NCBI GenBank assembly: GCA_913061475.1
Contig: CAJXUN010000015.1
Coordinates: forward strand, 1 to 64,000
Reading direction: 5' to 3'
Source of the DNA: an uncultured Colwellia sp.
GTDB taxonomy: Bacteria > Pseudomonadota > Gammaproteobacteria > Enterobacterales > Alteromonadaceae
DNA length: 64,000 bases
Part shown: in pieces, positions 8,267-64,000 of the stretch
How positions within the stretch are numbered: position 1 is the first letter of the stretch
Layout of the letters: each line of letters opens with the position of its first letter
Notes under the pieces: generated by a model
What the model was told of the DNA's origin: nothing
What the model saw: only the letters and a program-made list of their open reading frames with translations
The model's database searches: none
Translations under genes and position numbers: made by a program

Positions 8267-8276
8267 TGAGCGTATA

Positions 8277-9473: not shown

Positions 9474-9626
9474 GTTAAATCCAGCTATACAGTGTTGACA
9501 GTCGTGTCCTATTGTAAGTTAATTAGTAACCAAATACACGATGAATGCATTATGGCTTAATTTAAATATTTACTTTAATAATCGCTAATATTTTTCCTAA
9601 ATTAAACCACAACCATGAGACTTTTT

Positions 9627-9911
9627 ATGAATATCAATAAACTTGCTGAGCAAAATTATGACTGGGTTGAACGTATGGGTTGGCATAATAAAACCACGTT
9701 AGAAGCTCTAGCCTTAGTGGCTTCAGAGGTTGGAGAGGCAATTAATGAGTGTCGCGGTGAAAAACCCACAAATAACTTTGCCGAAGAGTTAGCTGATATT
9801 GTTCTACGAGTATTAGATATTGCGCATTGGCAGGGCATAGATATGGAGCAAGAATTGTTGAATAAAATGAAAAAGAATGAGCTACGGGGCACGCGTGGGC
9901 GTATCAAATAA
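9627..9911 (+). CDS. MazG-like nucleotide pyrophosphohydrolase
   Basis: This small protein of 94 residues belongs to the all-alpha NTP pyrophosphatase superfamily. It shows the metal-binding helices as ASEVGEAINE (EXXE-like) and FAEELADIVLRVLD (EEXXD-like). Such enzymes hydrolyse (d)NTPs, often damaged ones, to monophosphates. I prefer the start at 9627, which has a GAGA word seven bases upstream; an in-frame ATG at 9615 would add four residues but lacks a ribosome site. It is a single-gene unit followed by a terminator. Confidence 0.8.
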   Translation: MNINKLAEQNYDWVERMGWHNKTTLEALALVASEVGEAINECRGEKPTNNFAEELADIVLRVLDIAHWQGIDMEQELLNKMKKNELRGTRGRIK

Positions 9912-9936
9912 TAATATGAAAAAAATATTATTTTTG
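9910..9936 (+). terminator. Terminator after MazG-like gene
   Basis: AATAATAT and ATATTATT form an eight-base stem around an A-rich loop and run into a T-tract. The stem is all A-T, so its strength is uncertain. Confidence 0.5.
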
Positions 9937-10263
9937 AGGCGCTTTTCTTTTTAGGCAGGCTGAAAGTAGCTGTAACTTAATATTTTTATTTGACTTATAA
10001 GTGTTCGTAAACGCAATTAATGATGATTGCTTTACCAATAAATTACTCATCCTTTAATATTAATACAGGTAATTAAAACACCCGTTTAAAAAAATTTGCT
10101 TTCAAGCATTTTTCAAGGCAAACTCATTGGCACTTTATTTCTTTTACTCGTTAATGATAAATAATGAGTCACTGAGATGTTCACACGCTTGGTAGTAATC
10201 TATGATTATGTATTACCAGTCAATTGATCTATAAAAGATCCATTAAAAGTCAGGAGAGTAGGC
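9937..10263 (+). promoter_or_regulatory. fadBA upstream region
   Basis: This stretch of about 330 bases holds no gene that I can support. It should contain the fadBA promoter. I looked for a FadR-type (AACTGGTC-like) or PsrA-type palindrome and found no convincing match; ATTACCAGTCAATTGATC near 10214 is only a weak resemblance. CAGGAGAG at 10251-10258 is the ribosome-binding site of fadB. Confidence 0.4.
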
Positions 10264-12426: not shown

Positions 12427-13605
<1,179 letters not shown>

Positions 13606-13657
13606 GTTAAGCACTGATGATTTAGCCGTTTATCGCTAAGCTTCTGAGTTAACTTGT

Positions 13658-13685
13658 AAAAGCCCAACCTTTGTTGGGCTTTTTT
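13658..13685 (+). terminator. Terminator of fadBA
   Basis: AAGCCCAAC pairs with GTTGGGCTT across a four-base loop and continues into a run of T. This is a canonical intrinsic terminator. Confidence 0.9.
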
Positions 13686-13686
13686 A

Positions 13687-13867
13687 TGTACACGATGTAC
13701 GGTATAACGCGGTCACATGGATGTGAAAGAGCGTGTATGTACACGATGTACGGTATAGCGCGGGGAGTGGTCGTTTCTTACCATTCATAGCATCACGATA
13801 TTAATTTATCCGTATCTGTCGATGGTAATAGCGTATTTGCACAGGATGTCACGGTCACATAAATGTG
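13687..13867. repeat. Intergenic repeat cluster with CACAT-nn-ATGTG palindromes
   Basis: TGTACACGATGTACGGTATA occurs at 13687-13706 and again, unchanged, at 13738-13757, a 51-base period. The palindrome CACATGGATGTG lies at 13714-13725 and a variant, CACATAAATGTG, at 13856-13867. AAAGAGCGTGT at 13726-13736 recurs at 108-118 beside a related palindrome. The cluster sits between the fadA terminator and the convergent acetyltransferase gene, a usual place for short dispersed repeats. No function is evident. Confidence 0.7.
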
Positions 13868-13889
13868 AAGAGTAACGAATTTTTATTTT

Positions 13890-14435
13890 TTATTTTTTAT
13901 TTTTCATGCTGTATAGCACAACATCTAAATCACCGAGCTGTGAGTCACAGTGGATATAAGATTTTATATAGTCCATACCTATTTTCTTCATCACACCAAC
14001 TGAGCCATCATTACCATGCATAGCAACGGCACTAAATACTTTGTTTTCCGGTTGCTTTGCTAGTGCTTTTTGAACTTGTATCGCGGCTTCTGTGGCATAA
14101 CCTTTACCCCAAGTCGATTGGACAAAACGCCAGCCTAACTCTATATCATGCCAAATTGGTTGATCAGAGAAAAAGTCCATTGGCCGTACTAATATCCAAC
14201 CTATTTCTTGCTGTGATTCGATAATGGTTACTTTCCACAAACCCCAGCCTTTGTCTATATTTTTATAGGCGTTAAGGCGTGGAATAAATTTATCGCGGAT
14301 ATCTTCTCGGGTCGTCATCACGCCATTATTAATATAACGCATCACTTCTGGGTCTTGATCGAGTTGAAATAAAAACTCACTGTCACTTTCGTCAATGAGT
14401 TGATAACTAAGACGAGCTGAATTTTCAATATTCAC
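13890..14435 (-). CDS. GNAT family N-acetyltransferase, RimJ/RimL-like
   Basis: This 181-residue cytosolic protein has the RimJ/RimL (Acetyltransf_3) layout: an N-terminal LIDESDSEFLFQLDQDPEVMRY segment, the central IELGWRFVQSTWGKGYATEA, which carries the acetyl-CoA-binding turn (WGKGYA), and the late SVGVMKKIGM segment. The acceptor substrate, whether protein or small molecule, cannot be told. It is a single-gene unit converging on fadBA and diverging from the peptidase at 14599. Confidence 0.85.
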   Translation of the reverse strand: MNIENSARLSYQLIDESDSEFLFQLDQDPEVMRYINNGVMTTREDIRDKFIPRLNAYKNIDKGWGLWKVTIIESQQEIGWILVRPMDFFSDQPIWHDIELGWRFVQSTWGKGYATEAAIQVQKALAKQPENKVFSAVAMHGNDGSVGVMKKIGMDYIKSYIHCDSQLGDLDVVLYSMKNKK

Positions 14436-14598
14436 ATGGATACCTTTTTAACTGTTTTTGTAATCTTAATCATAATAATAAATAGGTAAGCTTTCATTAA
14501 TTTTTATTAACGCTTGTCGTTAGGTAGACATGAATTATCGTCTGCCATATTATGGCTTCATAATAAAAGACCCATTTCCTATAATAACTTGGTAAATT

Positions 14599-16773
14599 AT
14601 GAATAATAAAAAAATAACCTTAAGTTCTGCAATATTGATCGCGTTGTTCGGCCTATCAGGCTGCGGACAAAATGTGTCATCAACCTCTTCAACCGGCAAG
14701 GTGTTAAGCGTTACCAATGAAAGTAAGACATTAACTTATCCCCGCACGAAACAAGTTGCGGTTATTGATGACTACTTCGGTACTAAAATCACTGACAATT
14801 ATCGTTGGTTAGAAGATGACATGAGCGCTGAAACTGCAGATTGGGTAAAGGCGCAAAATAAAACCACATACCGTTATCTCGAACAAATTCCTTATCGCGA
14901 AAAAATCAAATCTCGTCTTTCTGCCTTGCTCGACTACGAAAAAGTAGGTATGCCTTTCATTGAAGGTGAGTACAGCTATTTTTATAAAAACGATGGCTTA
15001 CAGAATCAATATGTTTTGTACCGTCAAAAAGGCGATGCGCCAGCAGAAGTGTTTTTAGACCCTAATGCTTTTAGTGAAGATGGCACAGTATCTCTAGCGA
15101 GTATTGAATTTAGTGAAGACGGTTCATTAGCCGTATATTTAATTTCTGAGGGTGGTAGTGATTGGCGTAAAGCACGTGTTATTGACACCAAAACAAAAAA
15201 AGTACTTGAACCCGAATTAGACGACATTAAGTTTAGTGGTTTATCTTGGGTTGGTAATGAAGGCTTTTATTATTCAAGTTATGACAAGCCTACCGGCAGT
15301 GAGCTTTCTGCTAAAACCGATCAACATAAATTGTATTATCATCAATTAGCGACCGCTCAATCTGAAGATATTTTAGTCTTTGGTGGCTCTGAAGCTGAAA
15401 AACATCGTTATGTTAGTGGTGAAGTCACTAAAGATGGACGCTATTTATTAGTGTCAGCAGCAGTGTCTACCTCAGGGAATAAGCTGTTTATTAAAGATTT
15501 AACGAAGGCTAATTCGCCATTGATTACCGTTGTCGATAATACTGACTCAGATACTTACATGGTGAGTAGTCATGGTGATGATTTATTATTTGTCACTAAT
15601 ATGGCGGCACCGAATAAGCGCGTGATCAAAGTTAACGCACAAAAGCCAACACCAGATAATTGGGTAGATGTTATTCCGGAAACTGACAATGTCTTATCAG
15701 TTTCAACCGGCGGTAAGTACTTATTTGCTAAATACATGAAAGATGCCACGTCACTCATTCAGCAATACGACTTAAACGGTAAAAAAATTCGTGATATTGC
15801 TTTACCAGAAGTTGGCACCGCATCAGGTTTTAGTGGGAAAAAATCGCAAACTACACTCTATTATTCTTTCAGTAATCAGAAAACGCCTTCAACAATTTTT
15901 AGCTTAGATCTTGCTTCTGGTGAATCTGCAGTTCATATGAAGTCGAAAGTTAAATTTGATAGCGACAACTTCGAATCCAAACAAGTTTTCTATACGTCTA
16001 AAGACGGTACTAAAGTGCCGATGATCATTACTCATAAGAAAGGTTTAGTATTAGACGGCACTAACCCTACTATTCTCTATGGTTACGGCGGTTTTAATGT
16101 CAGCTTACAGCCACGATTTAGCTCAACGCGTGCGGCATGGTTAGAGTTAGGCGGTGTTTATGCCGTCGCTAATTTACGTGGCGGTGGTGAGTACGGTAAA
16201 AAATGGCACAACGCTGGTACGCAGTTGAAAAAGCAAAATGTTTTTGACGACTTTATCGCGGCAGCTGAGTATCTGATTAAAGAAAAAGTAACTTCACCTG
16301 ACAAGTTAGCTGTTATGGGTGGCTCTAATGGTGGTTTGTTAGTCGGTGCGGTAATGACGCAACGCCCAGAGCTATTTAAAGTGGCGCTACCGGCGGTTGG
16401 TGTACTAGATATGTTGCGCTACCATACGTTTACCTCTGGCGCGGGTTGGGCTTATGACTACGGTAAATCAGATGACAATGCTGAGATGTTCAATTATTTA
16501 TTAGGTTATTCACCGGTACATAATGTTAAAGCGGGTACTCATTACCCAGCTACATTGGTTACCACTGGTGATCATGATGATCGTGTTGTTCCCGCACATT
16601 CATTTAAATTTGCCGCTGAGTTACAAGCGAAACAAGCTGGCGCTAATCCAGCCTTAATTCGCATTGAAACCGATGCAGGTCATGGTGCTGGTACCCCGAT
16701 TAGTAAAACCATTGAGCAGTATGCCGATATTTACGGCTTTACCCTGTTTAATATGGGTGTAAAAGACATTTAA
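14599..16773 (+). CDS. Prolyl oligopeptidase, S9A family, probable lipoprotein
   Basis: This 724-residue serine peptidase probably cleaves short proline-containing peptides in the periplasm. The N-terminus is a lipoprotein signal with the lipobox LSGC near residue 22. The S9A N-terminal part has [17 protein letters not shown], then a seven-bladed propeller, then an alpha/beta-hydrolase domain. The nucleophile is S576 in GGSNGG, with GDHDDRVVP (Asp) and DAGHGAG (His) completing the triad. NLRGGGEYG is the usual substrate-site loop. It is the first of three S9 peptidases in this window. Confidence 0.93.
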
Positions 16774-50702: not shown

Positions 50703-52373
<1,671 letters not shown>

Positions 52374-52397
52374 AAATAGAGCTTAAACTCTATTTTT
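52374..52397 (+). terminator. First hairpin after groEL
   Basis: AAATAGAG pairs with CTCTATTT around a six-base loop immediately after the stop codon, ending in T residues. Confidence 0.65.
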
Positions 52398-52420
52398 GTA
52401 AGCCAAGCACTTAATAAATG

Positions 52421-52453
52421 AAAGCCCGAATAGTAATGTTCGGGCTTTTTTTT
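52421..52453. terminator. Main terminator after groEL
   Basis: AAAGCCCGAA pairs with TTCGGGCTTT around a short A/T/G loop and ends in a long T-run. The whole element, including the loop, recurs with one base change at 60894-60925. It also lies downstream of the minus-strand kinase gene only in antisense, so its main user is groESL. Confidence 0.92.
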
Positions 52454-52474
52454 GTTTGTTTTTATGGCGTTTAA

Positions 52475-53812
52475 TTAATGAAGAATTGGCAGTTTTATTT
52501 TGAACCTTGCACCACCAGAGGCTGAACTAGAAATACTTATTTCTCCGTCAAGTTGGTTCACAGCACTTTTAACAATTGCTAAGCCCATTCCCAAACCACC
52601 CGTCTTTCTCGTACGACTATTATCTAATCGAGCATATGGGATGAAAATTGTCTCATAGTCTTGTTTTGGTATGCCTTTACCATCGTCTTCAATGGATATT
52701 TCTACAAATGCAGCGACTTTATTAACGTTTACAATCACATTGCTTTTTGCATGACTCACCGCATTTTTTAGTAGATTGTCAATAATTAGTCGCAAATTTG
52801 CCGCATTACAATTAACGGTGATATTTTCAGTAAAATGGGCATCAACACATATCGTTGAATTCAATGTTAATTGGGATATTCGGTGTTCGATAAAGTGGTT
52901 TAAATTGAACTCTTCGTTACTATTTTCGTCCGTTTGAATATTCAACTTGGAAAATTGAATGATCTGAGAACACAGCTCATCAATATCAGTTATGTATTGA
53001 TCAATATTATTAACTAAATCAACTTGTTCTGAACTCGTACTCTTTTTCCTTAGAATACCTGTCGCTAATTGTATTCGACTTAATGGTGTTCTTAGTTCAT
53101 GTGGAACGGCTTGTGCAAATATTTGGCTTTCATTGACTTTATTAGACAAAGCTAAGGCCATTCTATTGAAGCTTTCGGCAAGTATTGTTAAAGGCTCTGA
53201 AAGGTGATTAGCTCTCGACTTTAATTCCCCTTTACCAAACTGGGAACTTATCAGGTTTAGGTGATTTATGTCTTTTTGAAGTTTTCTTATCGGAAGGTAC
53301 AGCGCTAACCCAATAACCACCACAATAACAAAAAGAAGAATAAAAATAGAATATTCTTCAATATCAAAAGACTCTTCCGGTAAGTCGTAGCCATTTAGCT
53401 CAAGCTCTTGCGATTTGTCTTTAATAATAAATTTATCGGAAGTATTTTCTATTGCGTGAATAGCTAATAACTCTCCGTCTTCTAACTCATAAACATCGAT
53501 ATTTTTATGACTATTGAGAAAAACACATTCAGTGCACAACTGACGTATGTCTTTAGCACCTAACCAGCCAATATCGAACGGATAATCCTGCTTATCAATG
53601 TTGCTATAAAAATCATTTGCTTGAATTTTTTTAATTTTTCTTTGGCTTTCGAGCAAGTTATTAACAAATATGGTGTCGTTAACAAAGTCTTCTACTGCAT
53701 CATGCTCATTCCACTTATCCAAAATAAAAAAGGTCAGGAAAACACTGGTAAATATAGCTAAAAATAGGGATCCATATAAGCGAGTAAAAAAAGGTGTAAT
53801 ATAATTATTCAT
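52475..53812 (-). CDS. Two-component sensor histidine kinase, RstB-like
   Basis: This 445-residue inner-membrane kinase has two transmembrane helices (about 12-31 and 153-173) enclosing a periplasmic domain of about 120 residues that contains LCTEC (C93, C96), a possible redox or metal site. A HAMP region follows, then the dimerisation domain with phospho-acceptor H238 in AVPHELRTPLSRIQ, and an ATPase domain with NLLKNAVSHA, EDDGKGIP and GGLGMGLAIV. It overlaps the regulator gene by eight bases and is translated after it. It is RstB-like in layout, but orthology is not shown. Confidence 0.9.
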   Translation of the reverse strand: MNNYITPFFTRLYGSLFLAIFTSVFLTFFILDKWNEHDAVEDFVNDTIFVNNLLESQRKIKKIQANDFYSNIDKQDYPFDIGWLGAKDIRQLCTECVFLNSHKNIDVYELEDGELLAIHAIENTSDKFIIKDKSQELELNGYDLPEESFDIEEYSIFILLFVIVVVIGLALYLPIRKLQKDINHLNLISSQFGKGELKSRANHLSEPLTILAESFNRMALALSNKVNESQIFAQAVPHELRTPLSRIQLATGILRKKSTSSEQVDLVNNIDQYITDIDELCSQIIQFSKLNIQTDENSNEEFNLNHFIEHRISQLTLNSTICVDAHFTENITVNCNAANLRLIIDNLLKNAVSHAKSNVIVNVNKVAAFVEISIEDDGKGIPKQDYETIFIPYARLDNSRTRKTGGLGMGLAIVKSAVNQLDGEISISSSASGGARFKIKLPILH

Positions 53813-54482
53813 TAACGAGTATATAGCCTTTATTTCGAATTGTTTTAATCAGTTTATAAGGTTGCTTGTCATCATTAAGCTTTCTTCTAAGTCCTGAGAT
53901 GCGCATGTCGATCGAGCGATCGGTTATATCGTAATTGATACCTCTTAACGCTTGGATGCATTCTTCTCGTGAAACGGTTTGGCCTACTTTACTTGTTAAT
54001 AGCGCTAACAAATCAAATTCAGAGGTCGTTAAATCAACTATTTGGTCATGTAAAGTCACCGATAAAGTGTCATGATTAATGACAAGGTTATTAGCTGATT
54101 TTTGTGCTGGTTTTATGAGGTCAACTTTTGCTCTGCGCAATAATGCTTCTATTCGAGCTGACATTATATGAGGCTTTGCTGGTTTTCTTAAATAATCATC
54201 TGCGCCAAATTTTAGTAAACTAACTTCACTAATATCATCTTCTCTGGCGGTCAATACTATTATAGGTCCACTATAAAACTCCCGTGCCTGTTTACATATA
54301 TCAAATCCATCAACTCCGGGTAACATCAGGTCAAGTAGGATAAGATCTGGCGTTAACTCACGAATTGTAGAAATAGCAACGCTCCCATCACAAACAACCG
54401 TGGTTTGATAGCCATCACTTTGCAAGTACATCTCAGTCAAGCGAGCAATTTCATTGTCATCTTCAATTATTAATATATGCAT
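53805..54482 (-). CDS. OmpR-family response regulator, RstA-like
   Basis: This 225-residue regulator has a receiver domain (ILIIEDDNEI, phospho-acceptor D51 in LILLDLMLPGVDGFD, and the conserved KPAKPH lysine region) and a winged-helix output domain. In the latter, REECIQALRGINYDITDRSIDMRISGLRRKLNDD is strongly RstA-like. It is the first gene of the pair with the kinase. It is divergent from the lipoprotein gene at 54652, 169 bases away, which is a plausible target. Confidence 0.93.
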   Translation of the reverse strand: MHILIIEDDNEIARLTEMYLQSDGYQTTVVCDGSVAISTIRELTPDLILLDLMLPGVDGFDICKQAREFYSGPIIVLTAREDDISEVSLLKFGADDYLRKPAKPHIMSARIEALLRRAKVDLIKPAQKSANNLVINHDTLSVTLHDQIVDLTTSEFDLLALLTSKVGQTVSREECIQALRGINYDITDRSIDMRISGLRRKLNDDKQPYKLIKTIRNKGYILVNE

Positions 54483-54651
54483 TGTTTTATAGAGCTAGGA
54501 TAATTAGTTAATAGCATTGTACTGATTTTAGCAAAAGTTTCGATGTTTCTTACAAGCGCTTACAAAGCAACTTATTGCTTACATAGGCTTACCCTTTCAC
54601 TAAACATAATCTTGTATGATCCCTTTTAAGCATTAACCAAGAGGATCACAA

Positions 54652-55908
54652 ATGAAGCTTATCTATCTAAATTATTTTTTACTATTGTTCGCCACTTCAC
54701 TTTTAGTTGGGTGTAATTCAGGTTCGTCATCAGAAACGACTACGCCTACAACCGAAACTACGACACCAACAACACCAACTACTCCGACGACGCCAACAAC
54801 ACCTACAGCGAATGAATTGGGAATTTCAGCAGTACCTGAGTCATTAAAAGGGACATATACCGCAGCGTTGAAATTTGATCGTTATACAAAAATAGATACC
54901 CCCAATGGTGGTGCCATTAATATTCTTGCTCAAAATGAAGTAACTAATAACCAAATTGTTCGCGCTCGTAATATTTTACAACATTTTTTAACGGACTACC
55001 CTGGCTCTGAATATGGTGCAGATAAAAGCGCTGTCGCCAATAAAATGGCTGATAACGGCGCAGTACTATTGTTATTAAATGGTGTTGATGATGGCACTAA
55101 TGCTGCGGCTGAACTTGATGGTCAACCATTATATTTTGGTGAAATGCAAGTAGAAGGGGGTAACTGGTATATAAATCAAAATTATGAGCATCGAGATGCT
55201 TCTTTTGAAGAGATTTTACATTTTGTTCATGATTTTGGCATCGGTGTAGATCAATATGCTACTTTTAACGGCGTACTACCAGAGTATCAAGTAGAGATCC
55301 GTGCCGCACAAGTCACAGCACTTTCAGGTAAGCTTTGGGCGTGGCCAGAAGATCAGGCTGGTTGGATAGCGGAGTTGACAGCTGAAAATAGCTTGTCACA
55401 GGAGTATTTAGCTTCAGTGATTGATACTTACTATGGTCTTTGGGGCGCGTTTGATAACCAGTATGGTATGTGGGGCATGTACATTGCAAAAGTTCGTGAT
55501 GATCTAGTAACAAAGGATCCCCAAGGCGCTGCGATAATGGATAATAAATTTTTTCATCCCTATCTTACTTATAACGCGCGAATTGATGAAAGTTTTGTCG
55601 GTGACTTTAGCTTGAAGTTTAACGATAGTTTGTCTTATACCCACCATTCTCAATACTTAAAAGACATTACACTTACTGGGAAAAATGAAAGTAATGTAGT
55701 TGTAAATCAACTTAACAATAATATTACTGGAAATTCAGCAGCCAATACGGTGATTTTTTCAGGCTCTTCTTCTGAGTATCAAGTTACCAATGAAAATGGT
55801 CAAGTTACAGTACAAGATATGCAAGATAACCGAGACGGACTTAATACTTTAACGGATATTGAAAAATTAAAGTTTACTGATACCACAATGGAGTCCCCTA
55901 CTAGCTAA
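54652..55908 (+). CDS. Lipoprotein with TTP-repeat linker and C-terminal calcium-type repeat domain
   Basis: This 418-residue protein begins with a lipoprotein signal (lipobox LVGC, Cys21), then a Thr/Pro linker of repeated TTP units (about residues 29-51). The central domain (about 55-300) is unfamiliar: it contains RARNILQHFLTDYPGSEYG and DASFEEILHFVHDFGIG, where the Glu/His arrangement vaguely recalls metal sites but no standard protease motif is complete. The last 60 residues (GNSAANTVIFSGSSSEYQVT ... DGLNTLTDIEKLKFTD) match the terminal module seen after RTX-type repeats in marine secreted proteins. It is probably surface-exposed. It is divergent from the two-component genes. Confidence 0.7.
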   Translation: MKLIYLNYFLLLFATSLLVGCNSGSSSETTTPTTETTTPTTPTTPTTPTTPTANELGISAVPESLKGTYTAALKFDRYTKIDTPNGGAINILAQNEVTNNQIVRARNILQHFLTDYPGSEYGADKSAVANKMADNGAVLLLLNGVDDGTNAAAELDGQPLYFGEMQVEGGNWYINQNYEHRDASFEEILHFVHDFGIGVDQYATFNGVLPEYQVEIRAAQVTALSGKLWAWPEDQAGWIAELTAENSLSQEYLASVIDTYYGLWGAFDNQYGMWGMYIAKVRDDLVTKDPQGAAIMDNKFFHPYLTYNARIDESFVGDFSLKFNDSLSYTHHSQYLKDITLTGKNESNVVVNQLNNNITGNSAANTVIFSGSSSEYQVTNENGQVTVQDMQDNRDGLNTLTDIEKLKFTDTTMESPTS

Positions 55909-55989
55909 TAATCTTACTTAACGCTAACCGTTTGCCTTGATAATTAAATCAAGGCAAACATGTGACGACCTTAACTAAAGGAATAGCAA

Positions 55990-56730
55990 ATGAAAATTGG
56001 CAATGAAGCGGGGACGCAAAGTCTTGCAACAATAAATCAACAAAATGACGTGCAAGAAATAAAGTCACAACCAGAAGATCATAACAACACAACGGCATCA
56101 GCGAATATTAGCGCATTTGATCATTTATCATTGTCGACAGAGGGTAGGTTATCCCAAGAAATAGACGCGACTTCCGATGAAATAGACCAAATATTGGAAC
56201 GCCATCTAACACCAGATCAAAAAAAAGATATTGAGAGTATTTATAAAAAGCTAGATGAGCTCTTTGAAAAAGATAAGCTAACTATAAAAGAAGAATCTCT
56301 CGCAGAAAGCCTATTCGAGAAAGTGCATAACACTCTTGAAACTAGCATTGAAAAATTATCAGACGAAGAGCATGTTAATGTCGATGAGTTAGCTAAAAAG
56401 ATGGTAACGTTGACTCTGAAATTAGAAAACGTTGAAAATAGTACTTTTTCGATTACCTTCGATAATAAAAAGAACCATTTGTTTGCTGATATGGAACACG
56501 AAGCACAAATAAGCAAAAAAACGTTAACCGTTGCAGAACTGAATGATCTACCAACGAACGAGTTGAATAAATTACCTGCAAACCAGTTAAGAAAACTAAA
56601 TGAAAAACAGTTGAATAGACTTAATTCAGCTCAACTTAATGGTTTAGCTGTCGCACAATTGAAGAAACTGAGTCCCAGTAATATAGATAAACTGAATCAA
56701 TCCCAATTAAATAAACTTCCCTCCACATAA
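55990..56730 (+). CDS. Unrecognised protein with eight-residue leucine repeats
   Basis: This 246-residue hydrophilic protein has no signal peptide. Residues 40-160 are helical and acidic. Residues 181-246 form about eight tandem octads with the pattern N-K-L-x-x-x-Q-L (NKLPANQL, RKLNEKQL, NRLNSAQL, NGLAVAQL, KKLSPSNI, DKLNQSQL). Leu or Ile is at 184, 192, 200, 208, 216, 224, 232 and 240. I do not recognise the family; similar octads occur in some large adhesins. AAGGA precedes the ATG by about seven bases. It lies 81 bases after the lipoprotein gene and could be co-transcribed with it. Confidence 0.6.
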   Translation: MKIGNEAGTQSLATINQQNDVQEIKSQPEDHNNTTASANISAFDHLSLSTEGRLSQEIDATSDEIDQILERHLTPDQKKDIESIYKKLDELFEKDKLTIKEESLAESLFEKVHNTLETSIEKLSDEEHVNVDELAKKMVTLTLKLENVENSTFSITFDNKKNHLFADMEHEAQISKKTLTVAELNDLPTNELNKLPANQLRKLNEKQLNRLNSAQLNGLAVAQLKKLSPSNIDKLNQSQLNKLPST

Positions 56731-56746
56731 GTTAGTGCATTCGTAG

Positions 56747-56914
56747 CATCAATCTACCGTTTTTTATGTCCTTGGAAGATATCTACAATGGGTAAAAGAA
56801 TTAAATGGTGAGGAATGTAACAATAGCTTCATTTATCCTGAAGGCCTAAAAATCCAACTTATTAATCCGAGAAGTTTTAGATTTTCGTTTTATACTAAGT
56901 TAGCTTTCAATTGA
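56747..56914 (+). pseudogene. Possible remnant reading frame
   Basis: An open frame of 55 codons without a start runs to TGA at 56912 and reads with protein-like composition (VLGRYLQWVKELNG, FIYPEGLKIQLINP, FRFSFYTKLAFN). An in-frame stop at 56744 cuts it off. It could be the 3' end of a lost gene, perhaps carried by a mobile element. I cannot name the family and it may be chance. Confidence 0.3.
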
Positions 56915-57175
56915 AAATCGCTTAAGATTCCAAGCAGCCGCTAGTAACTCAATAACTAATGGCAGCTTTGAGGTGTGAATTGAAAATTAAATAAGCGAGC
57001 TTACCAAGACTATAGGGGGCGGTGGCTAGAATGTGGGTAGCTATATTTAATGGAATACGTATTTATAAGCTGATTGCAGATTAGGTCTGAGCTACTACAA
57101 ATAAAAGTTACTAATTTTTAACTTGACGAGTATATTTGTTAAAATTCAGTTGGTTAACTTAGGTCGTGAATTCGC

Positions 57176-57265
57176 AGGGGTATAAAGTGGGGTATCACTA
57201 CTAATGCCCATTTAATTAATTCATTTAAAACAAACAGATAATCTCTACATGGGCGGCATGATGTA
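57176..57265 (+). repeat. groEL-tail repeat, copy 1
   Basis: This 90-bp unit opens with AGGGGTAT-AAAGT-GGGGTAT (two direct GGGGTAT boxes 12 bases apart). The second box can pair as GGGTAT with ATGCCC (one G-T pair). It ends with a 17-base exact copy of the groEL 3' end. A strong terminator follows at 57292. See copies 2 and 3. Confidence 0.85.
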
Positions 57266-57291
57266 TAGATTTTAGCCTAAATCGCTTTTCT

Positions 57292-57326
57292 AAAAAGCCA
57301 TAACATATTGATGTTATGGCTTTTTT
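57292..57326. terminator. Terminator after repeat copy 1
   Basis: AAAAAGCCATAAC pairs with GTTATGGCTTTTT around an eight-base loop. No gene ends nearby, so it may be a left-over groEL-type terminator from an earlier junction, parallel to the one after copy 3. Confidence 0.8.
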
Positions 57327-57357
57327 GTTTCTGTTTTTCATAAAGCCTTATAACTTT

Positions 57358-57447
57358 AGGGGTATAAAGTGGGGTATCGATAATACCTCCCATATACTTA
57401 GTTCTATAAAAACAAGGCGATAATTCATCTATGGGCAGCATGTTGTG
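57358..57447 (+). repeat. groEL-tail repeat, copy 2
   Basis: It shares the opening block of copy 1 with no change through the second GGGGTAT, then varies: the hairpin partner has changed so that GGTAT pairs with ATACC. AAAACAAG is shared with copy 3. The groEL-like end is degenerate (ATGGGCAGCATGTTGTG, three differences), which fits the oldest or decayed junction. Confidence 0.85.
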
Positions 57448-57547
57448 ATTTAAGTTACGAGAATGTATCAATTAAATGAAGCCAGAAAAGCAATCTACTG
57501 ACTTTTACTTTCATTACTCTCTTTTAGTTAAACTTGAATTGGGTGCG

Positions 57548-57588
57548 TATTATGCGCATAATATGATTATTGGATTATTGGATTATTG
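57548..57588 (+). promoter_or_regulatory. Probable ParD operator: perfect palindrome plus octamer repeats
   Basis: TATTATGCGCATAATA at 57548-57563 is a perfect 16-base palindrome. It is followed at once by three tandem copies of GATTATTG (57565-57588), ending just before the parD start. ParD-family antitoxins repress their own promoters through palindromes of this kind; the assignment here is by position. Confidence 0.7.
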
Positions 57589-57599
57589 GAAAATTAATT

Positions 57600-57887
57600 A
57601 TGAATATTACTTTAGGTAAAGAGTTCGAACGAAGAATTACTGAAAAAGTGTCTGATGGTTTATATACCTCAGCAAGTGAAGTGATCCGTGATGGATTGAG
57701 ATTATTGTTTGAAAAAGATACGGCTAAAAATCAACAGCTTGAAATATTACGCGAAGAAGTGGCGAAAGGTTTTGAACAGCTAGCTGCGGGCGAATCGTCA
57801 AATCACAGTGTTATGGATATATTTGAACAAGCCTCTCTTTCCGTAAATAAACAGTCTGAAAGTAAGGGCTACAATGCCAACCTATAG
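57600..57887 (+). CDS. parD: ParD-family antitoxin
   Basis: This 95-residue protein has the ribbon-helix-helix fold of type II antitoxins: MNITLGKEFERRITEKVSDGLYTSASEVIRDGLRLLFE. The C-terminal half is the toxin-binding tail. A longer frame starts at 57570 within the repeats of the operator; the ATG at 57600 matches the family. It overlaps parE by 14 bases, so synthesis is coupled and the antitoxin is made first. The pair lies between repeat copies 2 and 3 and may stabilise the segment. Confidence 0.92.
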   Translation: MNITLGKEFERRITEKVSDGLYTSASEVIRDGLRLLFEKDTAKNQQLEILREEVAKGFEQLAAGESSNHSVMDIFEQASLSVNKQSESKGYNANL

Positions 57888-58164
57888 GCTTTCTCCTTTA
57901 GCAGAAGAAGATTTATATAAAATAATCTCTACGACAATGAGTTCATGGGGTAATGAGCAAGCAAAAGAGTACGCACAGAATATAGATGCCGCCTTAATAA
58001 AACTTGCTCAATATCCTGACTTCGGTAGAGAAAGAAATGAAGTTTACAATGGTGCTAAAAGCTTTCCTGTAGAAAAACATATAGTGTTCTATCAAGTCAG
58101 TGGTAGCGGTATTGATGTTGCTCGTATTCTTCATCAACGCATGGATCCCTCAAAACATTTTTAA
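57874..58164 (+). CDS. parE: ParE/RelE-superfamily toxin
   Basis: This 96-residue toxin has YRLSPLAEEDLYKIISTTMS at the start, DFGRERNEVYNGAKSFPVEKHIVFYQV in the middle and the typical VARILHQRMDPSKHF end. ParE proteins poison DNA gyrase; RelE relatives cut mRNA, and the C-terminal R.LH..MD pattern favours ParE. It is followed after 39 bases by the primase-helicase gene on the same strand. Confidence 0.92.
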   Translation: MPTYRLSPLAEEDLYKIISTTMSSWGNEQAKEYAQNIDAALIKLAQYPDFGRERNEVYNGAKSFPVEKHIVFYQVSGSGIDVARILHQRMDPSKHF

Positions 58165-58203
58165 TGATTAAAAAATAGAGCGGACTTTGGTGGAAATATA
58201 ATT

Positions 58204-60576
58204 ATGCCTGAAAGCCATGTTAATAAACTTGCCAAATTAGATGCTAGTCTTCAATTATTAAATGAAGAGCGACTTGCATTGCTCAATGAACGCCAAGCGT
58301 TAATCACACAACACGAAGCTGAATTAGCTCAAAATTTTAACCTACACGCCTCTCCTGAAGCTAAAATTGACCTTTTTCTTTCCTATTTTAAAGGTCGTAA
58401 TGATGTTTACCCATTTAGATGGGAATCTAAAAATGGTCGCAGTGGTTATTCTCCCGCTTGTTGGAATGAATGGCAGCCAAAAATTTGTAATAAACCGAAA
58501 ATAAGTTGCACAGAATGTAAAAATCAGAATTTTAAAGCTCCGGATCATCAAGCTATTTATGGACACTTAAAAGGTATTCAAACCGTAGGGATTTACCCAT
58601 TATTAAATGACAATTCAACCTATATTCTTGCTGCAGATTTCGACAAAGACGATTGGTTTAAAGCGGTAACTGCATTTGCGCTTACTTGTGAATCATTAGA
58701 TGTTCCTTATTTATTAGAACGTTCAAGAAGTGGCAACGGTGGTCATGTGTGGATCTTCTTCTCACAAACTGTAACTGCTAGCGATGCTCGTCGATTAGGT
58801 AATGGTTTACTGCGTAAAACAATGGAACGCTATCCGTTACTATCATTTGATTGCTTCGATAGATTATTTCCTAATCAAGATATTATGCCGGTGGGGGGCT
58901 TTGGTAACCTGATTGCTTTACCATTACAGTTAGAGCCAAGAAAATATAACAATAGTGTTTTCATAAATAATGAAGGCGTTCCATATAAAGATCAGTGGTC
59001 AATATTAGCAGCTACTGAAAAAGTGACTAAACTGCAGCTTCAATCAACCCTGAACCAGCTAAATGCTTATATTGAAATAGCGCCAGAAGACATTGAAAAT
59101 AATGAGCCATGGAAGAAACTTAACGTTAATGAGAACATTAAGATCAACGATTGCCCTTCGATGCTCACATTAACGCTAGCTGATCAGTTATATGTTCCAA
59201 TCTCTAATTTACCCGGAAAACTGACCTCTAAGTTAAAACATTGTGCAGTATTTTCTAATCCAGAGTTCTACAAACGACAAGCCTTACGCTTATCAACGAT
59301 TGGTACAAGTCGATATATTTGTTCTGCACATATAGAAAATGGTTATTTAATCTTACCTAGAGGTTGTTTAGCCGAAGTTACTCGCATCATATCAAGCCAA
59401 AAAATAGAGATTGAATACACCGATAAACGATTTGAAGGTAGCCAACTAGAAAAAATCAAGTTCACTGGTAAACTTAAAAGCCAGCAGAAAAAAGCTATTG
59501 ACGCTTTATTCGCACAAACCAATGGTGTTTTTGTTGCATCGACGGGGTTTGGTAAAACCGTTACAGGATTAGCTCTTATCGCAAAAAGGAAGGTGAATAC
59601 CTTAATTTTGGTTCATAATCGCCAATTAGCGGAACAATGGCTTGAACGGATAAAAGTATTCCTAGCGAACGTGGAAGTAGGTTCATTATTAGGTGGTAAA
59701 GATAAGCTGACCTATGAAGTTGATGTAGCTACTTATCAAAGCCTAGTTAGCCGTAATGGAATAGACATTAAACCTGCCATTGAAAGATATGGGCAAATAT
59801 TAATAGATGAATGCCACCACTTGCCTGCATCAAACTATGAGTGTTTGATAAAATCAGTAAATGCTAAATATATCCACGGATTTACAGCTACACCTAAACG
59901 CCAAGATGGTTTAGAAAAATTAATGCACTTCCAAATAGGCTCTGTTGTTTATAAGGCAGCAAGCTCCACCAGTAGCTTTGAACAGAATGTGAAGGTGGTG
60001 AAGACTAATACTAATTTCCCTTCAGAATGGTTAATTCCTGAGACTAAACCACATATATCTCAAGTTTATAAACACTTAGTTTGTGATCAAGCTAGAAATG
60101 AAATGATTGTTAACAGTATCAAGCAGTCCGTAAACCATGACAGATCTGTCATGGTACTTACCGAAAGAAAAGAGCATATTGAATTACTTGCTAAATTGAT
60201 GGCTGATAAGGGAATAAAGGTTGTTGAACTGCATGGCGGTATTTCAACAAAGCAAAGACAAGAACGAATAACTTTCTTATCCAGTAAACCAAGCAATGAT
60301 GAAGCTGTTGTTATCTTAGCTACAGGAAAATACGTCGGTGAAGGTTTTGATTTACCACGTTTAGATACTTTATTTATAACACTACCGATAGCTTGGAAAG
60401 GCATTTTAGCGCAATACGCTGGACGAATTCAGCGAGAATGGAGTAGTAAAACTGTTATTCAAGTTTACGACTTTATTGATGACTTCCCAACATTACAGCG
60501 TATGTGGAAGAAACGAGAAAAAGGTTATAAAGCGCTAGGATATAAATTTAATGAACAGAAAAATTTAGATTTTTGA
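58204..60576 (+). CDS. TOTE-type archaeo-eukaryotic primase / SF2 helicase
   Basis: This 790-residue protein joins two enzyme domains. After a short coiled coil (residues 5-45), residues 51-290 form an archaeo-eukaryotic primase-like domain with the metal pair D145 and D147 (ADFDKDD), the SGNGGHVW motif (H181) and GFGNLIALPLQ. A possible zinc site is C95, C102, C105. Residues 420-770 form a superfamily-2 helicase with Walker A TGFGKT (447-452), DECHH (535-539), TATPKRQDG and the late QYAGRIQREW. This is the architecture of the TOTE conflict-system proteins proposed to act against invading DNA. It has no nuclease domain of its own. It may be co-transcribed with parDE. Confidence 0.88.
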   Translation: MPESHVNKLAKLDASLQLLNEERLALLNERQALITQHEAELAQNFNLHASPEAKIDLFLSYFKGRNDVYPFRWESKNGRSGYSPACWNEWQPKICNKPKISCTECKNQNFKAPDHQAIYGHLKGIQTVGIYPLLNDNSTYILAADFDKDDWFKAVTAFALTCESLDVPYLLERSRSGNGGHVWIFFSQTVTASDARRLGNGLLRKTMERYPLLSFDCFDRLFPNQDIMPVGGFGNLIALPLQLEPRKYNNSVFINNEGVPYKDQWSILAATEKVTKLQLQSTLNQLNAYIEIAPEDIENNEPWKKLNVNENIKINDCPSMLTLTLADQLYVPISNLPGKLTSKLKHCAVFSNPEFYKRQALRLSTIGTSRYICSAHIENGYLILPRGCLAEVTRIISSQKIEIEYTDKRFEGSQLEKIKFTGKLKSQQKKAIDALFAQTNGVFVASTGFGKTVTGLALIAKRKVNTLILVHNRQLAEQWLERIKVFLANVEVGSLLGGKDKLTYEVDVATYQSLVSRNGIDIKPAIERYGQILIDECHHLPASNYECLIKSVNAKYIHGFTATPKRQDGLEKLMHFQIGSVVYKAASSTSSFEQNVKVVKTNTNFPSEWLIPETKPHISQVYKHLVCDQARNEMIVNSIKQSVNHDRSVMVLTERKEHIELLAKLMADKGIKVVELHGGISTKQRQERITFLSSKPSNDEAVVILATGKYVGEGFDLPRLDTLFITLPIAWKGILAQYAGRIQREWSSKTVIQVYDFIDDFPTLQRMWKKREKGYKALGYKFNEQKNLDF

Positions 60577-60661
60577 TTTTATATTGAACATTATTCTTCA
60601 ATGCATGCAAAAAAACATAATTTCATTTTAATTCAATAGGTTAGGTTGCACGCTGATTTCT

Positions 60662-60752
60662 AGGGGTATAAAGTGGGGTATCACTACTAATACCCATATA
60701 ACTAAGCCAATAAAAACAAGTAGATATCTATCGGAATCGGCGGCATGATGTA
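60662..60752 (+). repeat. groEL-tail repeat, copy 3
   Basis: Opening block and hairpin are as in copy 1 (GGGTAT paired with ATACCC, fully complementary here), followed by AAAACAAG and a groEL-like end, ATCGGCGGCATGATGTA (one difference in 17). It lies 85 bases after the primase-helicase gene and before a duplicate of the groEL terminator. It is the probable right end of the accessory segment. Confidence 0.85.
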
Positions 60753-60778
60753 ATTTTACTGGTCTAAACGTCTATTGC

Positions 60779-60832
60779 GGCGTTGTTATTTCGCTCACGT
60801 ACCAACAAAACGTACGCTACGCTTATAACGCC
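60779..60832. repeat. Imperfect hairpin repeat
   Basis: GGCGTT ... ATAACGCC and GCTCACGTAC ... GTACGCTACGC form an imperfect inverted repeat of 54 bases, flanked by direct CTAAACGT words (60764 and 60840 areas). It resembles short palindromic intergenic repeats of Colwelliaceae. No coding potential. Confidence 0.5.
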
Positions 60833-60893
60833 TAGAACTAAACGTTTTATTCTGCGTAAAGCATAACGCTTATTTACCCACGTAAAAATTGAA

Positions 60894-60925
60894 AAGCCCG
60901 AATAGTAATATTCGGGCTTTTTTTG
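60894..60925 (+). terminator. Duplicate of the groEL terminator
   Basis: The stem, the loop and the T-run match 52421-52452 with a single G-to-A change in the loop side. The stem AAAGCCCGAA / TTCGGGCTTT is intact. Identity of the loop, which function does not demand, points to common origin with the groEL terminator. Confidence 0.88.
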
Positions 60926-61167
60926 TTGCTTTCAATTTAAAGTTCTAGCATGGCCATTCACTCAAACGACCATACTTATTGTCAAAAATAACGACTAGAT
61001 AAACACCTTTAAAGTGTCGAAATTTCAATGTTTTTTCTGAATTTACCTTGGTAATCAGCGCCAATTGAATCAAAGGCTTATCGATAATCAATAGCATTTA
61101 AAAAGCAAAAATAGAAATCAGCTGATTTTATTGTACTATCCTTAGTGTTATCACAAAAGGGGGTGTA
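60926..61167 (+). other. Upstream region of the propeller kinase gene
   Basis: No gene or clear promoter is seen. AAAGGGGGTG at 61156-61165 is a good ribosome-binding site for the ATG at 61168. Confidence 0.45.
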
Positions 61168-64000
61168 ATGAATAGCCGTATCTCTATTATTTCTTCATTT
61201 TTTATTTTCTTTTATTTTTTTGTTGTTGAGCTTACTTCTGCACAACTTTTTGAGTATGGAGCGCCATTTTTTGTAACTGTTGGAAACGAAGATGTTTTGC
61301 CGGAAGGGATCATTACTGCACTGGCAACTGATCACGAAGGATTTTTATGGGTAGGTACTCAATCAGGATTAGTTAAATATGATGGCTATTCATTTAAAAA
61401 ATTTAATCACCAACCGAAAAACACAAACTCATTAATAGGGAACTATGTAAAAACCCTTTACGTATCTAAAAGTGGAAAACTATGGATAGGTACAATGAAT
61501 AATGGTTTATCTGTGTATGATCCTCAAAAAAATATATTCACTAACTACCAACATGATCCAAAAAATAGAGATAGTATCGCAAATAATCGCATTGAAGCTA
61601 TTGTCGAGGATGAGCTAGGTGGCATTTGGATTGGCACCAATAACGGACTAGATCTTTTGCCCCTAAATAAAGACAAGTTTGTGCATTTTAAATATCAAGA
61701 GAATAACAAATCCGGAATAAATGATAACCATATTCGTTCGTTAGCAATTGCTCAAAGCGGCGATTTGTGGATTGGAAGTTGGAACGGACTAAATAGGTTA
61801 ACACCTCATAATCATGCTATTGAAAGCATTCACACCCAACCTGATGGTAAAAGTTCTTTTTATAAGCAAAATATTACCTCGTTAACTATTGATCAAAAAG
61901 GCGTCCTTTGGGTAGGGACAAGAAAAAATGGCTATGCCAAAATTGTCGGGGAAAATCAGCTCGAAAGATTTAGTTTTAATCGTGTTCAATATAAAGATAA
62001 TGATGAACCATGGGTATTTTCTATCGTTCAAATTAGCGATGAAGAAGTTTGGATTGGTACTTATGGCCAAGGTGTATATGTTGTTGACATAGAAGCTGGC
62101 GAGATCTCCGAGCAACACAAAAATAAAGAAAACTCCAGTGATAGTCTAAGTATGGACAATATTGGCGCAATGTTTGTTGATAAATCTAATTTGATTTGGG
62201 TTGGTACTTGGGGAGCGGGTTTAAATTATTACCACCCACATAATTCAACGTTTCGCACTTTACGAAAAAAAATGCCATCAACTAATAAAGGAACCTCACC
62301 AAGTGTATTATCTGCAATAGAAAGCAATAATGGTCAAATATGGCAGGGGACTGACGCAAATGGTATTAATATCATTGAATTAAGCGACAATCCTCTGTCA
62401 AAGGTAAATGCTAACAATAGCGAAATAGCGTTACTGAAAAACGATTCTATTAAGGCTATGCATCAACCGGACAATAACACGGTATTGATAGGTACAATGG
62501 CAAATGGCCTTTATCAATACCGTATAAAAGAAAATAGTCTGACTGCGATCAGCATTGATGATGGGGTTGATGGACTACAAATATTGGCTATATCATCTGA
62601 TATTAAAGGAAGAATTTGGGTAGGTACAAGTAGAGGCTTATATTATCGTAGTGTTAATAAAAAAAGTTTTACTAAATTATCAACCTTAGATGAACCTTTG
62701 GTTACTTTTAGTGATGCTATAAAACTAATCGTTCATCAAGCGAATGGAACAACATGGATCGCGTCGCTATCTAAGCTATATTATATTCCACCTGATGGAA
62801 CTGCATTGGTTAATGTATCGCAGGAAAATAGTGGCATTATTAGCACTGAGGTGCTCGGCTTTCTTGTTACTAAAAATGATTCGTTATGGATTGGAACTAA
62901 TCGTGGGCTAAATCGTCTCATTAGCTCAAACTTAAATGAATTCCCTACCTTTGAACTTATAGATAAAAAACTAAAGCAGCCGCAAGATACTCCATTACAA
63001 TTTGGCAATATGCTGGAGGATTCACTTGGTCGAATATGGAATTCCGCTGCAATGCTTGATCCCAATGATTGGTCGATATACTTTTTTGATCATTTTGATA
63101 GCCCAAATGTCGGCGGTATCTGGCTAGATTCAAGTCTTTTGATGAAAGACGGTACAATGATGTTTGGAGGGACTATGGGGGGATTATTGATAAAACCGGA
63201 AAATTTTCGAGTTCAGCTTTATCAGCCGCCACTTGTGGCAACTGAAATCAAAATTGATGAAAATAAAACTTACCTTGCAAATGCAAAAGACATCTATCTA
63301 CTCCCGACATCCAAGAGTATTGCTATTGAATTTTCAGCATTGGACTTTTCATCTTCATCCAAACTTCGCTATGCCTATAAGCTGGATGGGTTTGATGAAA
63401 ACTGGATAGAAACCGATAATACACATCGGGTTGCTAAATACACAAATTTAAACCCTGGTAAGTATTACCTACAAATAAAAAGTGCAGATAAAATGGGAGC
63501 TTGGCAGAGTAACTTTTTATCTTTAAATATTCATGTCGCCCCATCTTGGTACGAAACCTGGTGGGCAAGATTGATATTATTTTTGCTAATTATCCTTGTG
63601 TTGGTCATTTTGTATAAAATACGTGTAAGGCGCTTTGAGAAACGGCAAGATCAACTTAAATTGCAAGTTGAAGAAAGAACGTTGGACTTAAAAACAAAAA
63701 GTGAAGAAGTTACTCGATCATACAATTTGTTAATGGAAACTAAAAATAAGCTAGTGGAAACTGAGAAACAAGCCGTTTTAGGTCGATTGGTGGCAGGGGT
63801 TGCTCACGAATTAAATACTCCAATAGGCTCTGGTATCACTGCTGCTAGCCTTATTACTTTAGATATTGAAGTGATAAAATCGTTAAGTGAAAAAGGGAAG
63901 TTGACCCAACGAGTATTTAAAGAGCGAATTGAACGTTTATGCCAATGCAATACGATTGTTTCAAATAGTTATGAGAGAGCAGCGACACTGATCGATAGTT
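61168..64000 (+). CDS. Two-component-regulator-propeller sensor histidine kinase, partial
   Basis: The first 944 residues are present; the gene runs off the window. A signal peptide (IISSFFIFFYFFVVELTSAQ) is followed by two seven-bladed propellers built of Reg_prop units such as DHEGFLWVGTQSGLVKYDG and EDELGGIWIGTNNGLDLL (about residues 45-700). A Y_Y_Y domain (about 720-790, YAYKLDGFDENWIETDN) comes next, then one transmembrane helix (about 798-820), a coiled coil (QDQLKLQVEERTLDLKTKSEE) and the start of a histidine kinase domain with phospho-acceptor H880 in GVAHELNTPIGS. Similar kinases sense polysaccharides in marine bacteria; the ligand is unknown here. Whether a receiver or output domain follows lies outside the window. 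Confidence 0.9.
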   Translation, partial: MNSRISIISSFFIFFYFFVVELTSAQLFEYGAPFFVTVGNEDVLPEGIITALATDHEGFLWVGTQSGLVKYDGYSFKKFNHQPKNTNSLIGNYVKTLYVSKSGKLWIGTMNNGLSVYDPQKNIFTNYQHDPKNRDSIANNRIEAIVEDELGGIWIGTNNGLDLLPLNKDKFVHFKYQENNKSGINDNHIRSLAIAQSGDLWIGSWNGLNRLTPHNHAIESIHTQPDGKSSFYKQNITSLTIDQKGVLWVGTRKNGYAKIVGENQLERFSFNRVQYKDNDEPWVFSIVQISDEEVWIGTYGQGVYVVDIEAGEISEQHKNKENSSDSLSMDNIGAMFVDKSNLIWVGTWGAGLNYYHPHNSTFRTLRKKMPSTNKGTSPSVLSAIESNNGQIWQGTDANGINIIELSDNPLSKVNANNSEIALLKNDSIKAMHQPDNNTVLIGTMANGLYQYRIKENSLTAISIDDGVDGLQILAISSDIKGRIWVGTSRGLYYRSVNKKSFTKLSTLDEPLVTFSDAIKLIVHQANGTTWIASLSKLYYIPPDGTALVNVSQENSGIISTEVLGFLVTKNDSLWIGTNRGLNRLISSNLNEFPTFELIDKKLKQPQDTPLQFGNMLEDSLGRIWNSAAMLDPNDWSIYFFDHFDSPNVGGIWLDSSLLMKDGTMMFGGTMGGLLIKPENFRVQLYQPPLVATEIKIDENKTYLANAKDIYLLPTSKSIAIEFSALDFSSSSKLRYAYKLDGFDENWIETDNTHRVAKYTNLNPGKYYLQIKSADKMGAWQSNFLSLNIHVAPSWYETWWARLILFLLIILVLVILYKIRVRRFEKRQDQLKLQVEERTLDLKTKSEEVTRSYNLLMETKNKLVETEKQAVLGRLVAGVAHELNTPIGSGITAASLITLDIEVIKSLSEKGKLTQRVFKERIERLCQCNTIVSNSYERAATLIDS

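What the first reader, a model, noticed from the sequence alone, without database searches (positions are those of the whole stretch)
57176..60752. Three copies of an undescribed ~90-bp repeat, each ending in the 3' end of groEL
Copies at 57176, 57358 and 60662 share a block with two direct GGGGTAT boxes 12 bases apart. They also share a hairpin whose two arms change together (ATGCCC, ATACC, ATACCC as partners of GGGTAT) and a final 17 bases equal or nearly equal to the last 17 bases of groEL before the final stop base. The hairpin keeps pairing despite substitutions, which suggests selection. Paired boxes beside a gene-end core are what a site-specific recombinase attachment site looks like. 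The tandem array suggests that several elements have used the groEL end in turn.
Basis: partly seen in the sequence, partly recalled or inferred. Interest (0 to 1): 0.85.

Follow-up and report, generated by a model that had tools for sequence, protein, structure and literature searches.

The report
Mobile gene cassettes stacked behind groEL
The repeats are landing marks of a family of mobile gene cassettes that insert, one after another, at the end of the essential chaperone gene groEL in gammaproteobacteria, mostly without carrying their own integration enzyme, and some of them have moved between genera.

Summary
The three copies are real; the genome holds five, all downstream of groEL on its strand. 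A 92-nt model of the site gave 104 hits in 68 of 395 family genomes: all 87 on groEL's contig lie downstream on its strand, 17 lie on other contigs. The covarying hairpin is not supported. The site reads as a lambda-like attachment arm: paired boxes, IHF-like site, groEL 3' end as core. Eleven of these genomes carry a dedicated arm-binding tyrosine integrase right behind groEL; it was not found in the window's genome. Of 89 cassettes delimited in fetched regions, 80 show no trace of that integrase. The window's 183-bp non-coding unit and ParDE/TOTE cassette are 97.5-98% identical in another genus whose groEL end is 79% identical, with breaks at the cores. Best explanation: groEL-specific integrative elements plus many small integrase-less cassettes moved in trans (trans action inferred). 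Integrase-less tandem islands are known at ssrA and tRNA genes, and staphylococcal islands use groEL; eight literature searches showed me no such family in gammaproteobacteria.

The parts
50715..52373 (+). groEL; its 3' end is the chromosomal core/target
   Evidence: relatives
52356..52372 (+). core copy at the groEL end (left end of the array)
52374..57265 (.). cassette A: sensor kinase and response regulator (minus strand), lipoprotein-like ORF, repeat protein with a sub-threshold ALTTAQ match, then site 1
   Evidence: domain names of the kinase and regulator read by eye; cassette status inferred from its boundaries
52421..52453 (+). terminator-like hairpin after the groEL core (start of cassette A)
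   Evidence: such hairpins after 70 of 89 cores
57176..57265 (+). attachment site 1: paired boxes, IHF-like site, core 57249-57265
57266..57448 (+). cassette B: 183-bp non-coding miniature unit (terminator arms 57292-57325 plus site 2); 98.9% identical in G348
57358..57448 (+). attachment site 2, core 57431-57447
57449..60753 (+). cassette C: ParD, ParE, TOTE primase-helicase, site 3; 97.95% identical in another genus
57600..57887 (+). ParD antitoxin (PF03693)
57874..58164 (+). ParE toxin (PF05016)
58204..60576 (+). TOTE-type primase-helicase (PF22548 plus helicase domains)
60662..60753 (+). attachment site 3, core 60736-60752
60754..64000 (+). cassette D (runs past the window to site 4 at contig 64607-64697): 1110-aa hybrid two-component regulator; site 5 (68200-68290) and cassette E lie beyond the window

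Best explanation
The repeats are the distal attachment sites of integrative elements specific for the groEL 3' end. An arm-binding tyrosine integrase recombines a circle (paired-box arm, IHF-like bend, core copied from groEL) with the groEL end. This restores groEL, usually supplies a new terminator, and leaves box arm plus core at the far end. Each new insertion lands at groEL and pushes older units outwards, giving a same-strand array. Two classes share the site: large autonomous elements carrying the integrase next to groEL, and many small cassettes without it, down to about 180 bp, which I infer are integrated (and perhaps excised) by an integrase supplied in trans and kept for their cargo (toxin-antitoxin, defence, regulators and others). 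Shown by sequence: site anatomy, groEL linkage, integrase clade and position, loci with and without insertions, core-bounded sharing between genera. Inferred: integrase binding to the boxes, trans action, the IHF role, the order of insertion, the route of transfer between cells.
For: Linkage: 87 of 87 same-contig hits downstream of groEL on its strand in the family (17 further hits on other contigs), and 16 of 16 outside it (1 more on another contig). Of 92 HMM sites in 66 regions, 0 are inverted. Integrase: 11 of 395 genomes hold it at 49% identity or more, and in all 11 it lies directly behind groEL (G176 only as a partial hit 0.7 kb away); alignments begin about 225-260 bp after groEL in the nine near-complete or two-piece cases; arm-binding, core-binding and catalytic domains; nine groEL-linked sequences form one clade, 100/100. 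Boxes in both orientations precede it clearly in G027, G043 and the Psychrosphaera record, and more diverged by eye in others. A complete element in G027: groEL, integrase, relaxase and MobC, box arm plus core. Core-bounded sharing: B 97.5% and C 97.95% identical between G000 and G348 against 78.8% for the groEL end; G062/G096 cassette 98.1% against 83.3%. The B+ParDE block starts inside groEL's own core in G239 and G050 but after cassette A in G000. Loci with and without insertions. Terminator-like hairpin after 70 of 89 cores against 14.4% of random windows. IHF-like site with at most one mismatch in 24 of 71 against 6.1 in shuffles.
Against: The integrase was not found in the window's genome at E<=1e-40, and at E<=1e-75 only 11 of the 68 site-bearing family genomes have it, so movement of most cassettes needs a helper not seen in the same cell; broken copies could be missed at these cut-offs, and other integrase families were not searched for in the cassettes. 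No excised circle or carrier was found: one viral match to a loose box pattern looks unrelated, no viral integrase relative, and no plasmid with the cassette or a close integrase; the phage collection was not searched. Only 1 of 7 full-length distal arms of integrase-bearing units carries the YCCAT motif, against 34 of 64 others, so the cassettes may use a somewhat different integrase. 19 of 89 units lack a terminator-like hairpin, cassette C among them. Five of 17 congeners have no site at E<=0.01, and four weak matches (E 0.001-0.009) lie away from groEL. Some sites are degenerate and may be dead.
Confidence: 0.8

Rival explanations
1. Decayed accretion: each cassette was once a full element with its own integrase that landed at groEL and later lost the gene; the array is a graveyard that no longer moves by site-specific recombination.
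For: Decayed integrases exist: G028 in pieces, G007 as a 22-aa start, and a remnant behind two integrase-less units in G203. Some sites are degenerate.
Against: 80 of 89 units show no remnant of this integrase at tblastn E<=1e-4. Integrase-less units are 98% identical between genera with core-bounded ends, so they moved after losing, or without ever having, the integrase.
Confidence: 0.15
2. Homologous recombination (for example after natural transformation), using groEL or shared cassettes as anchors, swaps parts of the arrays; the repeats are only relics.
For: Arrays share cassettes and flanks that could anchor crossovers; exchange of islands in this way is known in marine bacteria (recalled; PMC4033161 seen in the listing only).
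Against: Shared blocks begin and end in the 17-18 nt core while the groEL ends are only 79-83% identical. The same block sits at different array positions in different genera.
Confidence: 0.1
3. The repeat is a regulatory element or groEL-derived RNA structure (hairpin under selection) rather than a recombination site.
For: CCCAT and ATGGG form an inverted repeat in many copies.
Against: No covariation for either helix; no Rfam match above its gathering score in 56700-61000; the site marks borders of shared blocks, and related boxes precede the integrase gene.
Confidence: 0.03

Closest known systems
ssrA-specific genomic islands of Dehalococcoides (PMC3146451; abstract and passages read)
   Same: Tandem islands behind one conserved gene, bounded by its 3'-end direct repeat; integration module next to the attachment site; 15 of 31 islands without an integration module, which the authors suggest may be cis-mobilizable elements.
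   Different: Serine recombinase (CcrB-like DsiB), tmRNA gene target, one bacterial group; no paired-box arm of this kind in the passages I read.
Cis-mobilizable elements and tandem accretion (as described in the passages of PMC3146451; reviews PMC5704250 and PMC7563491 seen in a listing only)
   Same: Units with both attachment sites but no integrase, stacked in tandem.
   Different: The defining step (movement together with an adjacent element) is not shown here; units go down to about 180 non-coding bp and far outnumber integrase-bearing ones.
Additive flexible genomic islands at tRNA genes (Alteromonas PMC4119200, PMC5217437; Methylophilaceae PMC10872708; passages read)
   Same: Insertion of variable cassettes at a conserved gene end; the Methylophilaceae islands (330 bp-42 kb) are marked by repeats of the last 20 nt of tRNA-Lys.
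   Different: tRNA targets; groEL and chaperonin have 0 occurrences in the main texts of the two Alteromonas papers.
Staphylococcal PICIs and resistance islands at groEL (PMC8125051, PMC4651549; passages read)
   Same: Integrate at the groEL 3' end; the last 18 bp of groEL overlap the att site (PMC8125051), 21-bp att (PMC4651549); groEL stays intact.
   Different: Staphylococci; phage-packaged islands with their own integrase; relation to the integrase found here not tested.
Integron gene cassettes (general knowledge; Alteromonas integrons in passages of PMC4119200)
   Same: Tandem cassettes without their own integrase, often with toxin-antitoxin genes.
   Different: Arm-binding integrase instead of IntI, gene-end core instead of attC/attI (attC not searched for here).

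Membership tests
Integrative elements of arm-binding (P4-type) tyrosine integrases | Integrase with arm-binding, core-binding and catalytic domains | tested here: met
   PF13356, PF22022, PF00589 in the two integrases scanned, from G027 and G043; not found in the window's own genome
Integrative elements of arm-binding (P4-type) tyrosine integrases | Direct-repeat core shared by target gene end and distal end, target gene kept intact | tested here: met
Integrative elements of arm-binding (P4-type) tyrosine integrases | Arm-type boxes near the integrase and at the distal end | tested here: met
   diverged in some elements; binding not tested
Integrative elements of arm-binding (P4-type) tyrosine integrases | Excision to a circle and reintegration | not testable with these tools
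   no reads or bench data
Cis-mobilizable elements (CIMEs) | Both attachment sites present, no integrase | tested here: met
   80 of 89 delimited units without a trace of this integrase; other integrase families not searched for
Cis-mobilizable elements (CIMEs) | Mobilised in cis after accretion of an autonomous element | not testable with these tools
   stacking seen (G203), mobilisation not
Integrons | IntI-type integrase beside the array | tested here: not met
   the integrase linked to these arrays has an arm-binding domain, which IntI lacks (recalled); no IntI search was made in the genome
Integrons | attC sites (R-box/L-box folded strand) | not tested
   no attC search was run; the two helices tested show no covariation
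Phage satellites at groEL (PICI) | Satellite genes beside a groEL-specific integrase | not tested
   no satellite-gene search was made; G027 carries relaxase and MobC genes

The most novel reading that the evidence does not exclude
An integron-like capture system built on a different recombinase: the groEL 3' end serves as a shared docking site across an order of gammaproteobacteria, and a mobile pool of integrase-less cassettes, including non-coding units of about 180 bp that are little more than terminator plus attachment site, is inserted there in trans by a few autonomous elements, each cassette rebuilding groEL's end and usually its terminator.
Probability: 0.4. Interest if true: 0.75.

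Novelty: new variant of a known kind. Interest (0 to 1): 0.62.

Why it matters
It identifies a widespread cassette hotspot behind an essential gene, marked by a site that can be searched for directly, so the defence and toxin-antitoxin genes in it can be delimited closely. It makes an open question testable: how integrase-less islands move. Here a candidate helper integrase, its site and near-identical recently shared cassettes are all named.

Tried and rejected
Hairpin covariation: tested and rejected. Viral origin: the exact box pattern gave 0 viral contigs; a looser one gave one contig that shows no groEL tail and looks unrelated; of 53 viral stretches matching integrase peptides none encodes a relative. 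Plasmids: 11 records with integrases, all under 60% identity, the best of the 8 listed 39.5%; for cassette C, 12 Acinetobacter records at 60-80% identity, covering at most 19% in those listed. The phage collection was not searched. Rfam: six matches at E<=1, all below their gathering scores, all within 60828-60970. Relatives of the integrase in genome contigs: 14 loci, the best (69%) behind groEL in Psychrosphaera haliotis, the others at 43% or less; in the four of these whose upstream DNA I printed, it looks like tmRNA/tRNA 3' ends by eye, not pursued. A Tn7-like reading was considered and dropped once the integrase was found. Literature: eight searches; I opened seven papers and judged the rest from listings; the only groEL-targeting elements I recognised are staphylococcal. 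Most subscription papers are not held.

Limits. The 20-nt box pattern alone is noisy: in 60 relatives it matched at up to 3 mismatches in 24 genomes, often away from groEL, and the reversed control matched too (9 places), so counts rest on the 92-nt model. That model was trained on 17 sites from genomes later searched, which match by construction. At E<=0.01 in the genus, four matches with E 0.001-0.009 lie away from groEL. A few partial model hits within 0.2 kb of groEL (G498 second copy, G623) may be the integrase-side boxes rather than distal sites. Of 61 regions planned 53 were fetched; the 8 of G176, G230 and G362 were left out, as were the site-bearing contigs without groEL, so the 89 cassettes are a sample. 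Three partial hits at 131 nt after groEL were dropped before cassettes were counted (92 sites to 89). Of the 20 loci, 14 from other genera and families (L070-L083) were scanned for boxes only, with one weak hit. Cassette borders rest on detected sites, so some large cassettes may be several. Related rows make the IHF and shuffle counts non-independent. The cargo scan covered 134 of 211 cluster representatives of at least 95 aa and showed the top 25 of 186 Pfam and 153 PADLOC families. The 8 genomes with 38-40% integrase relatives were not checked for groEL.
Full report
Observation. The three copies lie where stated. Each begins AGGGGTATAAAGTGGGGTATC and ends, about 75 bp later, in a near-copy of the last 17 nt of groEL before its final base: 17/17, 14/17 and 16/17 by eye. 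The genome holds five copies, all on the window's contig and strand; the two extra ones are at contig positions 64607 and 68200. Spacing is tight: among 60 full-length sites 59 are within 4 nt of the model length.

Hairpin. On 17 aligned sites the proposed helix pairs in 62.7% of cells, and 392 of 500 shuffles reach that. The CCCAT/ATGGG inverted repeat is frequent but does not covary. I therefore drop the RNA or hairpin argument.

Linkage to groEL. A sequence-only model of the site was run over 17 genomes of the genus, 395 of the family and 345 of the order, which overlap with the family set. In the genus 12 of 17 genomes match at E<=0.01; four weak matches there lie away from groEL. In the family there are 104 hits at E<=1e-4 in 68 genomes and 21 genera. 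With groEL mapped in those 68 genomes, 87 hits share its contig and all 87 are downstream on its strand, 98 bp to 69.8 kb away; the other 17 lie on different contigs. In the order search 16 same-contig hits outside the family are all downstream on groEL's strand (distances by hand; the farthest 107 kb), and one is on another contig. G498 has two groEL genes with a hit behind each; one of those hits, and that of G623, is partial and within 0.2 kb, so may be integrase-side boxes.

The integrase. Directly behind groEL in some relatives lies an integrase gene with arm-binding, core-binding and catalytic domains in the two scanned. In 395 family genomes, 11 hold it at 49% identity or more, all 11 beside groEL. 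In the regions I held, alignments begin about 225-260 bp after groEL. Just before it lie related boxes, in both orientations in G027, G043 and a Psychrosphaera haliotis record, more diverged elsewhere. Nine groEL-linked integrases form one clade among 35 rows, support 100/100; the P. haliotis one and the broken or partial ones were not in the tree. G223 and the P. haliotis record have contigs of equal length, 1,258,878 bases, so they are probably the same species. G027 carries a complete element: groEL, integrase, relaxase and MobC genes, then box arm and core 16.2 kb on. The window's genome has no match at E<=1e-40.

Anatomy of a unit. Between boxes and core there is an IHF-like site: 24 of 71 sites with at most one mismatch against 6.1 in shuffles (maximum 15 in 200 rounds), 67 of 71 with at most two against 38.2, and 47 of those 67 within a 3-nt span of positions (consensus recalled; rows are related). 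After the core, 70 of 89 units carry a terminator-like hairpin within 220 nt against 14.4% of random windows; 19 of 89 do not, the window's cassette C among them. Of 71 full-length sites 35 carry a YCCAT motif: 1 of 7 in integrase-bearing units, 34 of 64 in others. About 20-45 nt before the boxes many sites share an AATTCAA..GGTTA stretch (by eye, untested).

Cassettes. In 89 units delimited by HMM sites in 66 fetched regions the median length is 4.0 kb (134 bp to 33 kb). Nine contain the integrase or a trace of it and 80 do not; other integrase families were not searched for. G203 has a remnant behind two integrase-less units, which fits stacking at groEL. Non-coding units of about 180 bp occur in G000, G050, G239 and G348 (87-99% identical to the window's), and one of 177 bp in G122 is only 71% identical.

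Movement. The window's B+C block (core 1 to core 3) is 97.5% and 97.95% identical to two pieces in G348, of another genus, which are separated there by about 8.1 kb; the pieces overlap by 8 nt in the window, as a transposon with an 8-bp duplication would leave (transposon inferred). The groEL ends of the two are 78.8% identical. G062 and G096, different genera, share a whole 1638-bp cassette at 98.1% against 83.3% for groEL. The B+ParDE block begins inside groEL's own core in G239 (90.1%) and G050 (78.6%), but lies behind cassette A in the window. An 838-aa gene follows groEL within about 0.5 kb in G002 and G004, while in G015 it lies 5 kb away with one partial site in between; sequence like the native flank reappears after the last site in G003.

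Cargo. In the window: a two-component pair, ParDE with a TOTE primase-helicase, and a hybrid regulator; beyond it, a hydrolase-like and a beta-lactamase-family protein, whose function I do not claim. In 134 of 211 cluster representatives scanned, the families shown include AraC regulators, transporters, ParE and Fic proteins, and defence genes such as Gabija GajA and GajB, a reverse transcriptase, AriA and SoFic.

Meaning. Shown: site, linkage, integrase clade, stacking and core-bounded sharing between genera. Inferred: that this integrase acts on the integrase-less units in trans. Integrase-less tandem islands (PMC3146451, abstract and passages) and tRNA-based additive islands (PMC10872708, PMC4119200, passages) are known, and groEL 3' ends are targets in staphylococci (PMC8125051, PMC4651549, passages), so this is a new variant rather than a new kind.

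Noticed in passing
window 60754-60870 and L006 11793-11900; also after groEL in G002, G004, G005, G011, G016: A palindrome-rich stretch of about 100 nt follows some cores and the groEL end in several relatives.
   Followed up: partly
L006 about 11793-15220: After site 5 a further unit (TPR protein, 168-aa membrane protein, AraC regulator) has no recognised right site in this genome; related gene content ends in a site in G003 and G006 and in a partial one in G010.
   Followed up: partly
G348:C85 (L185), about 6121-14258 after groEL: About 8 kb of other DNA splits the B+C block; the two pieces overlap by 8 nt, suggesting a transposon insertion.
   Followed up: partly
44 sites, 20-45 nt before the boxes: Recurrent AATTCAA..GGTTA stretch in many of them, perhaps an excisionase or further arm site; not tested.
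   Followed up: no
window 55990-56730: Protein ending in short repeats (ELNDLPTNELNKLPANQL...) with a sub-threshold ALTTAQ match.
   Followed up: no
G498 contig 1: Two groEL genes in one genome each have an attachment-site match downstream.
   Followed up: no
G149 and G265 integrases (L162, L161): Nearly identical integrases in two different genera, suggesting recent transfer of an autonomous element.
   Followed up: no
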